NCBI GenBank assembly: GCA_017433245.1
Contig: JAFRHO010000012.1
Span: forward strand, 1-39,013
Reading direction: 5' to 3'
Length of the DNA: 39,013 nucleotides
Source of the DNA: Candidatus Saccharimonadota bacterium
GTDB lineage: Bacteria > Patescibacteriota > Saccharimonadia > Saccharimonadales > Saccharimonadaceae
Below, one piece after another: positions 978 to 39,012 of this stretch (position 1 is the stretch's first letter; each line of letters begins with the position of its first letter). The position numbers and the translations under genes are program-made. The notes beneath the pieces are model-generated. The model was not told the DNA's origin, searched no databases, and was given only the letters and a program-made list of their open reading frames with translations.

Positions 978-2909
978 ATGAATAAGCTCATGCCTACATT
1001 ATTTGTCATGACTATAATTACTGGCATTCTTTTTTCTTCAACCGTGGTTTCTGCCGAATCCAAAACCACCACCGCCTCCATCACCGTCCCAGAAGCCTGT
1101 ACTATGACGAGTATTAATAATGCTCCACATACTGCTACATTATCACCAAATACCTATTCTGGAGCCTCAGGTAGTGAATATCAGAATGGTATAGGTAAAA
1201 CTACACTAACAGCTATATGTAATGATGATAATGGTTTTGCTATTTATGCTATAGGATATACTGGTAATTCATATGATAGTGAAAATCATAATAAACTAGT
1301 AGGACAAAGTACTAATGTAGCTATTAATACTGCAGTATATACAAGTGGAGATACTACATCTTCTTGGTCTATGAAAGTAAATAAGATTAATGATAGTACA
1401 GTATCTTATAATCCACAGAACATGTCTATACTAGATAGTTTTGATTCCTGGCATATAGTACCAGCTACTTATACTAAAGTAGCACAGTATAAAGCCAGTA
1501 CTGGTTCTTCTACTACAGATACTACATTAGGAGCTAAAGTAGAGACTACTTATGCAGCCTACATTGCTTCTAATCAACCAGCTGATATTTATATAGGACA
1601 AGTTAAGTATACTATGGTGCATCCATATGACAATACGCCAAAAGATGGACCTATAACAGATTGTCCAGCCAACAGAATTTGTTATTCACCTAATGCTAAT
1701 GATATAGACGGTACTATGGGGCAGCAAACAATTACAGGAACAATTACTAGCGCCACTCTTCTTGCATCCAATTTTAGTAGAAAAGGCTATGGTTTTGCTG
1801 GCTGGAGTGATAGATATGATTATTCTAACGATAATGGCGCTAAGTTTTATGGTCCACAAGAAACCATCTCATTTACGGCTGGGCAATACGGCTCTACCAA
1901 CGGTGGCCTAAGATTATATGCAATCTGGATTCCGTCACAAGGTAGCCTCCAAGACCAAGCCAAAGTAACTAGCGTCTGTAATAGTCTTACTACTGCACCG
2001 ATTGACGGTACCGCCAACCTAAGCTCTGTATCTGCCCTGACTGATCAACGTGACAATGACACCTACGCTATCGCTAGACTTGCTGATGGTAATTGTTGGA
2101 TGATTGAAAACCTTCGTCTAGACAATACTGCAGAGCATAACACTGACGGTGCTCTCGCCCAAGGTTATGGCGCAAGCGCAATATATGGCAACTTCGGAGG
2201 TTTGGCCAATGCGGAATCCACTGGCTTTTCTTCGACATATTCTGCCAATTCTTTATATAGTAATGATGGTAGCAACAATACCATTAATATAGGTACATCC
2301 AATGCACCTTCCTATCGCATGCCACGTTATAATACCTTAAATGTTCCAAAGAATGCGAATAATAGACCTCAAAATCCAACCAGTAATTCTTTTGCCGATA
2401 ATAATACAACGGTGGGTTTGTATAGCTACGGTAATTATTATACATGGCATGCCGTAATAGCCGATTTGACTTTTTATAACAATGACAACCAATCCTCTAC
2501 TAATACCTCTCTTTGCCCTGCTGGTTGGCGTTTACCGAAAGGGGGCGACAAAACTAGAATTGAAGACAGTAACGACAATGATTATTGGAAGCTTACCGTA
2601 AATAAATTAAATAACAATAATGCCCCAGCGAATTACAATAATGAAGCGCACCCTTATTTTACAGGTTCTGCAGAGGCGGGCGCCGTCGCAAATAAACTTA
2701 AAAGTTTTCCAAATAATCTTCTTTATTCAGGGCGATTTAGTACATCAATAGCATATAGCAGAGGTTCACGTGGTTATTACTGGACGTCAACTGTGCATAG
2801 CGGTGTCGATAGCTATAATGTATTGTTTTATGCCACCAATGTTTACCCCGGCACACAAGTGGGTTATAAGTATACTGGATATACCATTCGTTGCATTGCG
2901 AACATATAG
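978..2909 (+). CDS. Secreted FISUMP-domain surface protein with InlB-type repeat
   Basis: 643 residues. Residues 1-26 form a signal peptide (hydrophobic core, VSA-ES cleavage). Residues ~27-215 are a conserved module shared with the genes at both window ends, with two Cys (EACTM, TAICN) and a closing GQVKYTMVHP strand; it resembles fimbrial or WxL-like beta-sandwiches only loosely. Residues ~225-315 contain a Listeria/Bacteroides repeat (GYGFAGWSD ... LYAIW). Residues ~350-643 are a FISUMP domain (Fib_succ_major): DQRDNDTYAIARLADGNCWM, SLCPAGWRLPKGG, YYWTSTVHSG, and terminal YTIRCIANI. Such proteins are outer-surface binding proteins; the ligand is unknown. The start is fixed by the leaderless -10 geometry. 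Base composition is AT-rich through the 3' end, unlike the right-end paralogue. Confidence 0.9.
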   Translation: MNKLMPTLFVMTIITGILFSSTVVSAESKTTTASITVPEACTMTSINNAPHTATLSPNTYSGASGSEYQNGIGKTTLTAICNDDNGFAIYAIGYTGNSYDSENHNKLVGQSTNVAINTAVYTSGDTTSSWSMKVNKINDSTVSYNPQNMSILDSFDSWHIVPATYTKVAQYKASTGSSTTDTTLGAKVETTYAAYIASNQPADIYIGQVKYTMVHPYDNTPKDGPITDCPANRICYSPNANDIDGTMGQQTITGTITSATLLASNFSRKGYGFAGWSDRYDYSNDNGAKFYGPQETISFTAGQYGSTNGGLRLYAIWIPSQGSLQDQAKVTSVCNSLTTAPIDGTANLSSVSALTDQRDNDTYAIARLADGNCWMIENLRLDNTAEHNTDGALAQGYGASAIYGNFGGLANAESTGFSSTYSANSLYSNDGSNNTINIGTSNAPSYRMPRYNTLNVPKNANNRPQNPTSNSFADNNTTVGLYSYGNYYTWHAVIADLTFYNNDNQSSTNTSLCPAGWRLPKGGDKTRIEDSNDNDYWKLTVNKLNNNNAPANYNNEAHPYFTGSAEAGAVANKLKSFPNNLLYSGRFSTSIAYSRGSRGYYWTSTVHSGVDSYNVLFYATNVYPGTQVGYKYTGYTIRCIANI

Positions 2910-36489: not shown

Positions 36490-37287
36490 ATGCAAACATA
36501 TAATCAGGTAGATGACAGTATTAATCCCGCAGTCAAACGCGAATACTGGGATGTTGCGTTTGGTTTGCAAGCCGTAGATGGCCTCAGACCCTCCAAATAT
36601 CTTGAAACGCTCGCGGATGAACATGTTGAAGGCACCAAGTCATACACAGAAGTTGCTGAAGCGATTAATAACTACTATCAACACAATCAGCAATCTGCAC
36701 CCGATAAGGAAGCCGATATTGTATCAAAGTCTATCTACGCTATACTTGCCGATGAATCATTTTCTTTCAATCTCGTTACCTTTAAAGGCTATCACCGTCG
36801 CCTCTTCGAGGAACTAAACCACGAAGTTTTTCACCCGGGTGAGTTTCGCAAAGTTAACATTACTAAGAAAGAACCCATTCTGAATGGCGATACAGTACAG
36901 TATCAAGATTATGGCTTACTCGAAGAATCACTTCAGTATGACTTTAATGAAGAGCAATCCATCGATTATGTTTCTATGACTCCATCAGAAAAAATTGGCC
37001 GTATCGCTACGTTTACTTCGCGCATCTGGCAAGTCCATCCCTTTCGTGAAGGTAATACTCGTACCACTGCAGTATTTATCGAAAAATATCTACGTAGCCT
37101 CGGCTTTACGGTCGATAATAAATTGTTCGAAAAACACTCCACTTATTTCCGTAATGCCCTAGTTCGTGCAAATTACAACAATCTCCCGCTCGGCATCAAA
37201 GCAACTGACGAATATCTAATTCGTTTCTTCGAAAACCTACTCCAAGCCAAGGAGCGCACGCTAGATGAAACTGCTATGCATATTTAG
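36490..37287 (+). CDS. Fic-domain protein (AMPylase-type)
   Basis: 265 residues. The core motif HPFREGNTRT (183-192) includes the catalytic His, and the flap/target-binding region is NITKKEPILNGDTVQYQDYG. Fic proteins usually transfer AMP from ATP to Tyr/Thr/Ser of a target. The first ~60 residues (GLQAVDGLRPSKYL ... EHVEGTKSYTEVAEAI) resemble the VbhA-like regulatory helix region joined to Fic; the inhibitory S/TxxxEG is DEHVEG here. It closely resembles Fic proteins I recall from gut and oral Firmicutes, Campylobacter and Bacteroidetes, so horizontal transfer is likely. No separate antitoxin gene is seen. Confidence 0.9.
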   Translation: MQTYNQVDDSINPAVKREYWDVAFGLQAVDGLRPSKYLETLADEHVEGTKSYTEVAEAINNYYQHNQQSAPDKEADIVSKSIYAILADESFSFNLVTFKGYHRRLFEELNHEVFHPGEFRKVNITKKEPILNGDTVQYQDYGLLEESLQYDFNEEQSIDYVSMTPSEKIGRIATFTSRIWQVHPFREGNTRTTAVFIEKYLRSLGFTVDNKLFEKHSTYFRNALVRANYNNLPLGIKATDEYLIRFFENLLQAKERTLDETAMHI

Positions 37288-37341: not shown

Positions 37342-39012
37342 CTACGCGCCAGGAGCGACGCAGCGGAGAGTCCGCCCGTAGTACTTGCTGCTATCGCCTG
37401 TGCCTGGGTAGACGTAAGATGAACTCAGGCTCAAGCGGTAGGCGCTGTAGGACGAGTAGACCGAAGAAGACCAATAGACGCCGCGCGAGCCACGATCGTT
37501 CAGCAAACCGCTGTCGACGTAGCCGGAATAGACGAAGTTGTTAGGATAGGTCCTTATAGAATTAGATGCGTCAGAGCCTTCTGGAGTGCCCGTATAATAA
37601 GGCTGAGTGCTACTTTCATAATTGGCTGGGTTAGTACCACCGTTAATACCTGTAACTACTAGTGACCAGAATTCATTATTGGCTTTATTAGACTTATTGC
37701 CTCCTTTTGGCAAGTGCCAGCCGGATGGGCAAAGAGAGGTACTTGTTACGCTACTATTATTGGCAAAGTTATATGTGAGGTCCGCTATGGCAGCATGCCA
37801 GGTGTAGTAGTTACCATAACTATACATACCAGCATTAGTAGTACTATTAGTAGCTGAGTTAGTGGTTGGATCCTGTGGTCTATTAGCGGAGGTTGATTGA
37901 TTATTGTAATTATTGTAGCGAGGGAATCTATAACCTGGTTCGCTGCCAGAGCCAATATTGACCGTATTATTACTACCGTCTGTACTATATAGACTGTTTG
38001 CGGTAGTGCTATTATTAGCCCAAGGTGCTTCTGAATCGGCGAGACCGGAGAAGTTGCTGTAAATGGAACTAGTACCATAACCTTGGGCGAGAGCGCCAGT
38101 AGAGTTGTCGCTATTAGTGCTCTCTAGTCTCAGGTTTTCAATCATCCAACAATTGCCATCAGCGAGTTTAGCAATAGCGTAAGTTTCATTATCTCGTTGG
38201 TCGGTAAGAGCGGAGACTGAAGTGAGGTTGGCAGTGCCATCAGTCGGTGCAGTTTCTAGGCTACCAGTGCCAGTACCACAGAGTTGTGAGACTTTAGCGG
38301 TGTCTTGGAGGCTACCTTCAGATTTTACCCATACAGCATAGAGAGATAAGCCAGGGTTTGAGCCGGTATACTGTCCGGCGGTAAAGGTAATGTCTTCTTG
38401 TGGGCCGTAGAACTTAGCATTGGTGTTGGTGGTGTAATCAAACTTATCGCTCCAGCCTGCAAAGCCATAGCCAGTTCTACTATAGTTAGAAGCAAGTAGC
38501 GTAGCGGAAGTTGCTGAGGTTGAGACAGTTTGCTGTCCCATGGTACCTTCTGCGGTTACAGTATTAGCAAAATAGCAGATTTTGCCAGAAGGGCAGGATT
38601 GTGGTTGAAGTGAGGTCTCGTTGTATGGATGTATCATAACATACTTCACTTGCCCCACATAGGTATCTCCAGGCTGATTTGGAGCAATAAAGGCGGCATA
38701 GGTAGTATCTATCTTAGCACCTAGGGTAGTATCGGTAGTAGAAGAACCAGTAGAGGCTTTATATTGGGCTACTTTAGTATAAGTATCTGGAATAGCATGC
38801 CAAGAATCAAAACTATTCTGGATAGACATATTAGCAGGTAAGTAAGATATAGTGGAGTCTGTAACTTTATTTACTTTCATAGACCAACTTGAAGTAGTAT
38901 CTCCACTACTATATACAGCAGTATCTATGGCTGCATTAGTATTACTACCTACTAGTTTAGTATGGTTGGTATCATCATAAGAATCGCCAGTATAGCCAAT
39001 GGCATAGATAGC
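37342..39012 (-). CDS. Secreted FISUMP-domain surface protein, N-terminus beyond window; variable-region-like tail
   Basis: The frame is open past the right edge, so the signal peptide and first ~80 residues are missing. The visible part matches the gene at 978: shared module (AIYAIGYTGDSYD ... GQVKYVMIHPYN), InlB-type repeat (GYGFAGWSD ... LYAVW), and FISUMP domain (DQRDNETYAIAKLADGNCWM, SLCPSGWHLPKGG, YYGRTLRCVAPGA). The last ~190 nt are clearly richer in GC than the rest of the gene and contain many NNC codons (Tyr, Ser, Ala, Arg) at scattered positions, as in variable regions made by diversity-generating retroelements. The role is probably ligand binding on the cell surface. Confidence 0.9.
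   Translation of the reverse strand, partial: AIYAIGYTGDSYDDTNHTKLVGSNTNAAIDTAVYSSGDTTSSWSMKVNKVTDSTISYLPANMSIQNSFDSWHAIPDTYTKVAQYKASTGSSTTDTTLGAKIDTTYAAFIAPNQPGDTYVGQVKYVMIHPYNETSLQPQSCPSGKICYFANTVTAEGTMGQQTVSTSATSATLLASNYSRTGYGFAGWSDKFDYTTNTNAKFYGPQEDITFTAGQYTGSNPGLSLYAVWVKSEGSLQDTAKVSQLCGTGTGSLETAPTDGTANLTSVSALTDQRDNETYAIAKLADGNCWMIENLRLESTNSDNSTGALAQGYGTSSIYSNFSGLADSEAPWANNSTTANSLYSTDGSNNTVNIGSGSEPGYRFPRYNNYNNQSTSANRPQDPTTNSATNSTTNAGMYSYGNYYTWHAAIADLTYNFANNSSVTSTSLCPSGWHLPKGGNKSNKANNEFWSLVVTGINGGTNPANYESSTQPYYTGTPEGSDASNSIRTYPNNFVYSGYVDSGLLNDRGSRGVYWSSSVYSSYSAYRLSLSSSYVYPGTGDSSKYYGRTLRCVAPGA
37345..37500 (-). other. Candidate DGR variable region (VR)
   Basis: In sense, Tyr, Ser, Ala, Arg and Val codons ending in C (TAC, TCC, AGC, GCC, CGC, GTC) are clustered, as expected from AAC template codons altered at adenines, ending in a constant block (GRTLRCV). 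GC content rises sharply here. No template repeat or reverse transcriptase lies in this window. Confidence 0.45.

What the first reader, a model, noticed from the sequence alone, without database searches (positions are those of the whole stretch)
37345..37500. FISUMP gene end looks like a diversity-generating-retroelement variable region
Seen: the last ~50 codons of the right-end surface gene are GC-rich against an AT-richer gene, with dense NNC codons at Tyr/Ser/Ala/Arg positions (VYSSYSAYR, SSSYVYPG, SSKYYGR) between constant blocks. Known: DGR variable regions lie at the 3' end of C-type-lectin-like proteins, arise from adenine mutagenesis of AAY codons, and are frequent in CPR genomes. 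The paralogue at 978 has the same fold but an AT-rich, non-biased end, so the shift is specific to this copy. Inference: this gene may be an active or recent DGR target.
Basis: partly seen in the sequence, partly recalled or inferred. Interest (0 to 1): 0.78.

Follow-up and report, generated by a model that had tools for sequence, protein, structure and literature searches.

The report
Remote retroelement-diversified bacterial surface gene
The end of this surface-protein gene in a tiny gut Saccharibacterium carries the footprint of a diversity-generating retroelement, a machine that deliberately scrambles chosen positions of a binding surface; the machine and a near-matching template lie on another contig of the same genome.

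Summary
In detail: the last 64-66 codons of the right-end FISUMP gene (window 37342-37539, - strand) have 75% GC at third codon positions against 35% in the rest of the gene; the paralogue at 978 does not (34%). Contig C2 of the same genome carries a complete DGR cassette: an RT whose best solved-structure match is the Bordetella phage DGR RT (E 5e-20), an Avd-like accessory protein, and a template (TR1) with 19 AAY codons. TR1's neighbouring VR differs from it at 21/51 adenines and 0/141 other bases. The window VR aligns to TR1 without gaps and has changed 18 of the 19 AAY codons. It also has 22/141 non-A differences, so TR1 as it stands was not its last donor. It shares 15 of these with a second VR at C2:118491. 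Between those two genes silent sites differ 57% in the body and 8% in the VR. So both were overwritten from one sister template, missing from this 78%-complete assembly or since lost. I call it a trans-acting (remote) DGR target. Present activity is unproven: no reads, no GC-rich downstream hairpin, only 54% of mismatches to TR1 at adenines.

The parts
37342..39012 (-). FISUMP surface-protein gene, 556 codons present, 5' end beyond the contig end
   Evidence: ORF, translation; FISUMP TIGR02145 E 9.7e-15 over cut-off
37354..37854 (-). FISUMP / C-type-lectin-like domain that contains the variable region
   Evidence: AlphaFold2 model mean pLDDT 77 whose structural neighbours are nearly all C-type-lectin folds, Z about 4-6.8
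37342..37539 (-). variable region (VR): block homologous to template TR1 (G000:C2, about 45073-45264, + strand) and to VRs at C2:44379, C2:79608, C2:118491
37342..37366 (-). IMH-like GC-rich 3' end of the VR; its core 20-mer CGCTGCGTCGCTCCTGGCGC is shared exactly only with the VR at C2:118490 in this genome
   Evidence: role as initiation site is inferred by analogy with BPP-1
978..2909 (+). FISUMP paralogue with AT-rich, non-VR end (negative control)
   Evidence: GC3 0.338 at end; no adenine bias against TR1, p=0.36; 13/15 third bases at AAY positions changed

Best explanation
The segment is a DGR variable region at the 3' end of a FISUMP (C-type-lectin-like) surface protein. It was rewritten in trans. 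An error-prone RT copied a template RNA of the TR1 family, putting random bases opposite template adenines, and the cDNA replaced the end of this gene. Shown: template family, RT and Avd-like protein in the same genome; adenine-centred differences; replacement of the VR while the gene body diverged. Inferred: that the immediate donor was a sister of TR1 (shared with the VR at C2:118491) that is missing from the assembly or has been lost, and that the variation tunes ligand or host-cell binding. Not shown: current activity.
For: RT1's best solved-structure match is the BPP-1 DGR RT 8ub7, E 5e-20, with the DGR-type GNLTSQ motif visible. TR1 to its adjacent VR: 21/51 A changed, 0/141 non-A. TR1 to window VR: 26/51 against 22/141, p=1.7e-6; 18/19 AAY codons changed against 8/44 others; within AAY codons 22/38 first/second bases changed against 2/19 third bases, p=5e-4. 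Window versus C2:118491: third-position differences 269/474 in the body and 5/64 in the VR, p=7e-15, while first/second bases of AAY codons differ 18/38 against 14/154 elsewhere, p=3e-7. Amino acids unreachable from AAY (K, Q, E, M, W) occur 1/285 times at the template-N positions of 15 VR-type tails, and 4/887 against 53/866 over whole tails of VR-type and AT-ended paralogues. Just upstream of the VR the window gene is nearest to another paralogue, C10.
Against: 22 non-A differences from TR1 mean only 54% of mismatches lie at adenines, below the 75% criterion of PMC8144416. No template matching the window VR at non-A sites was found in the assembly, the genus or viral contigs. No GC-rich hairpin lies downstream, only an AT palindrome. 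14 genus genomes keep VR-like FISUMP ends with no RT found, so such ends can persist as relics. No read or strain data were available. P-values treat sites as independent.
Confidence: 0.82

Rival explanations
1. A relic: the VR was written by an earlier state of TR1 or by a lost cassette, and has since drifted as an ordinary fixed lectin end.
For: 22 non-A differences from TR1; no hairpin downstream; VR79608 has a near-identical counterpart in genome G138, so some VRs are fixed; 14 RT-less genomes keep VR-like ends.
Against: Only 5/64 third positions differ from the VR at C2:118491 although the gene bodies are saturated, so the overwriting is young relative to the genes.
Confidence: 0.45
2. 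Gene conversion between FISUMP paralogues followed by ordinary positive selection on surface residues, with no retroelement acting on this gene.
For: The window gene is mosaic among paralogues; gene conversion also homogenises silent sites.
Against: Codons at template-N positions stay NNY and avoid K, Q, E, M, W (1/285); a working-looking DGR with a homologous template sits in the same genome.
Confidence: 0.08
3. Local codon or GC bias, or a horizontally acquired gene end, unrelated to DGRs.
For: GC3 0.75 against 0.35.
Against: The GC-rich block is the template sequence itself: about ten FISUMP ends share the jump, those alignable to TR1 differ at adenines, and the AT-ended paralogue shows no such pattern.
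Confidence: 0.02

Closest known systems
Bordetella phage BPP-1 DGR (mtd VR, TR, brt, avd)
   Same: RT homologous (8ub7, E 5e-20); Avd fold in the accessory protein (Z about 14 to 4dwl/8ub7); VR at the 3' end of a C-type-lectin-like protein; adenine-specific TR/VR differences
   Different: Target remote from the cassette; TR on the strand opposite to RT; accessory protein has an extra N-terminal domain of about 130 residues; window VR lacks a GC-rich hairpin
Patescibacteria (CPR) DGR clade 2 of PMC8144416
   Same: Host phylum, cellular, C-Lec-type targets
   Different: Clade assignment not tested here; the targets here have a recognisable FISUMP domain
Trans-acting DGRs of Thiohalocapsa PB-PSB1 (PMC10907252)
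   Same: Remote targets diversified by a cassette elsewhere; some VRs without a perfect template in the assembly
   Different: There population variation was observed; here only sequence footprints
MetaCSST pattern G5, 'RT inversed' (PMC6642488)
   Same: RT orientation reversed relative to the canonical cassette
   Different: There more than 20 times rarer than the canonical form; here 34 of 35 cassettes of the genus have TR and RT on opposite strands

Membership tests
Diversity-generating retroelement (system in this genome) | DGR-type reverse transcriptase | tested here: met
   RT1: RVT_1 over cut-off, best solved-structure match BPP-1 bRT E 5e-20
Diversity-generating retroelement (system in this genome) | Template/variable repeat pair differing at template adenines | tested here: met
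   TR1/local VR 21/51 A, 0/141 non-A; TR2/VR2 31 of 56 A, 0 non-A
Diversity-generating retroelement (system in this genome) | Avd accessory protein | tested here: met
   C-terminal half of the model matches Avd 4dwl/8ub7 at Z about 14; the RT2-linked homologue weakly matches NCBIfam DivGenRetAVD, E 0.0065, below its cut-off. Sequence families alone did not call it for RT1
Window segment as a DGR VR | Lies at the 3' end of a C-type-lectin-fold gene | tested here: met
   FISUMP over cut-off; C-type-lectin neighbours at modest Z, about 4-6.8
Window segment as a DGR VR | Excess of mismatches to a template at adenines | tested here: met
   26/51 against 22/141, p=1.7e-6
Window segment as a DGR VR | At least 75% of mismatches to its own template at adenines (PMC8144416) | tested here: inconclusive
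   54% against TR1, so TR1 as it stands is not its donor; 69% against the sister VR (22 of 32 at TR1-A sites); the true donor is not in the assembly
Window segment as a DGR VR | GC-rich hairpin/cruciform downstream of VR (PMC3240598) | tested here: not met
   Only an AT palindrome within 120 bp; the local VR at C2:44379 has a 7-bp stem with GTAA loop. Many VRs of intact genus cassettes also lack a detected hairpin, so the feature is not universal here
Window segment as a DGR VR | Hypervariation within the population | not testable with these tools
   No reads and no conspecific genome held

The most novel reading that the evidence does not exclude
A shared pool of templates of the TR1 family, moving between Saccharibacteria species, diversifies in trans a genome-wide set of FISUMP surface proteins. 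Target genes far outnumber cassettes, and the template is encoded antisense and convergent to the RT throughout the genus. The window VR is one such target, written by a template not present in its own assembly.
Probability: 0.25. Interest if true: 0.72.

Novelty: new member of a known kind. Interest (0 to 1): 0.52.

Why it matters
Saccharibacteria live on other bacteria, and their contact proteins are poorly known. A DGR writing into several members of a large FISUMP family gives a direct candidate for variable host-attachment or phage-evasion proteins. The genus also gives 35 cassettes, in 34 of which the template lies antisense to the RT, useful for testing how template RNA is made.

Tried and rejected
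A first blastn with custom scores returned nothing and was replaced by Python alignments. TR2 as donor: poor alignment to the window VR (30/85 non-A changes). All 35 templates found in the genus: none nearer than TR1. Search for a third template by the shared 3' 20-mer: only the two VRs themselves and a one-mismatch copy in G085, none in viral contigs. Pfam and PADLOC gave no family for the accessory protein of either cassette. A possible MutS-domain-I-like N-terminus (a recalled lead; accessory type MSL is named in PMC10053308) got no support from Pfam, solved-structure sequences or the fold list; the fold list was filled by the Avd half, so this is open. A Foldseek search of the FISUMP model gave only weak E-values.

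Full report
What is there. The window is contig C6 of a 688-kb, 78%-complete genome. Relatives found with the gene's protein are Candidatus Saccharibacteria, many from ruminant gut. The gene in question runs on the - strand, its 5' end beyond the contig, and stops with TAG at 37342. It encodes a FISUMP domain (TIGR02145, E 9.7e-15, over cut-off). An AlphaFold2 model (mean pLDDT 77) resembles C-type-lectin folds at modest Z, including bacterial surface-protein ends.

Observation. Third-position GC is 0.754 in the last 65 codons against 0.350 in the rest. The paralogue at 978 has 0.338 at its end.

The machinery. Contig C2 carries two DGR cassettes. Cassette 1: RT at C2:45316-46545 (-), accessory gene just upstream, TR1 at about C2:45073-45293 (+), and a FISUMP gene ending in a VR at C2:44379-44595. 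RT1's best solved-structure match is the BPP-1 DGR RT (8ub7, E 5e-20). The accessory protein's C-terminal half models as Avd (mean pLDDT 94.5; Z about 14 to 4dwl and 8ub7). TR1 and the local VR differ at 21/51 adenines and 0/141 other bases, p=2e-14. Cassette 2 has its own RT, TR2 and target; TR2 and VR2 differ at 31 adenines and no other base.

The window VR against TR1. It aligns over 192 bases without gaps: 26/51 adenines changed and 22/141 others (p=1.7e-6). 18 of 19 AAY codons are changed against 8 of 44 other codons, and all 19 codons still end in C or T. Within AAY codons 22/38 first and second bases changed against 2/19 third bases (p=5e-4). The paralogue at 978 shows none of this (p=0.36; 13/15 third bases changed).

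Which template wrote it. The 22 non-A differences mean TR1 as it stands was not the last donor. Fifteen of them are shared with the VR at C2:118491, as is the exact 3' 20-mer, found nowhere else in this genome. Between those two genes third positions differ at 269/474 codons in the body (near saturation) but 5/64 in the VR (p=7e-15), while the first two bases of AAY codons differ 18/38 against 14/154 elsewhere (p=3e-7). Just before the VR the two genes are only 21-54% identical. Both VRs were therefore overwritten from one source after the genes diverged. The simplest source is a sister template of TR1, in the missing 22% or lost (inference). PMC10907252 reports the same situation, a VR without a perfect template in the assembly, explained there by structural variants with intact components.

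Selection alone does not explain it. At template-N positions of 15 VR-type tails, amino acids unreachable from AAY by first- or second-base change occur once in 285. AT-ended paralogues use them freely (53/866 against 4/887 over whole tails, p=8e-13). I cannot fully exclude gene conversion between VR-bearing paralogues as part of the history.

Genus context. 94 of 174 genomes of the genus have a homologous RT and 85 the accessory gene. In 35 cassettes with a detectable TR/VR pair, 779/2075 adenines and 25/5504 other bases differ (the pairs were picked for adenine bias, so this is a description, not a test). In 34 of them the template lies just 3' of the RT on the opposite strand. PMC6642488 lists an RT-inverted pattern (G5) as more than 20 times rarer than the canonical one. 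VR-like ends also occur in 14 genomes with no RT found, 12 of them at least 90% complete. One of them, G138, has a VR matching TR1 at 140/141 non-A sites with 23/51 adenines changed. Relics, missing contigs, or transfer between species could explain this.

What limits the claim. No reads or strains were available; no GC-rich hairpin follows the window VR (the feature's role in BPP-1 from PMC3240598); its adenine share against TR1 (54%) is below the usual 75% criterion (PMC8144416). My weights: a VR written by a DGR at some time, 0.9; by a sister template of TR1, 0.6; active today, about 0.35.

Novelty. DGRs in CPR bacteria, C-lectin targets, remote targets and inverted RTs are all known. This is a new member of a known kind, in an unusual genus-wide arrangement.

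Noticed in passing
L011-L142 cassettes: In 34 of 35 DGR cassettes of the genus the template lies just 3' of the RT on the opposite strand (convergent), so template RNA could run antisense into the RT end.
   Followed up: partly
L012:10556-11335 (-) and homologues, alignment A1: RT-linked accessory protein: about 130-residue N-terminal domain fused to an Avd-like helical bundle; split in two ORFs in G026 and G084; some homologues carry an extra N-terminal HTH.
   Followed up: partly
G000 whole genome: 81 FISUMP matches (many are parts of one domain, so perhaps some 40 domains) in a 688-kb genome; about ten of 30 domains examined have GC3-rich ends, including C5:30712, C5:38100 and C7:56723.
   Followed up: partly
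G138, G085, G006, G092, G024, G078, G098 (loci L250-L269): VR-like FISUMP ends in genomes with no RT detected; G138:C13 matches TR1 of the window genome at 140/141 non-A sites.
   Followed up: partly
G000:C2:79608 and G138:C3:39243: VR79608 and a VR in another species have nearly the same amino acids at the variable positions, so some VRs appear fixed.
   Followed up: no
36490-37287 (+): Convergent neighbour of the FISUMP gene carries a Fic-like HPFREGNTRT motif; read by eye only.
   Followed up: no
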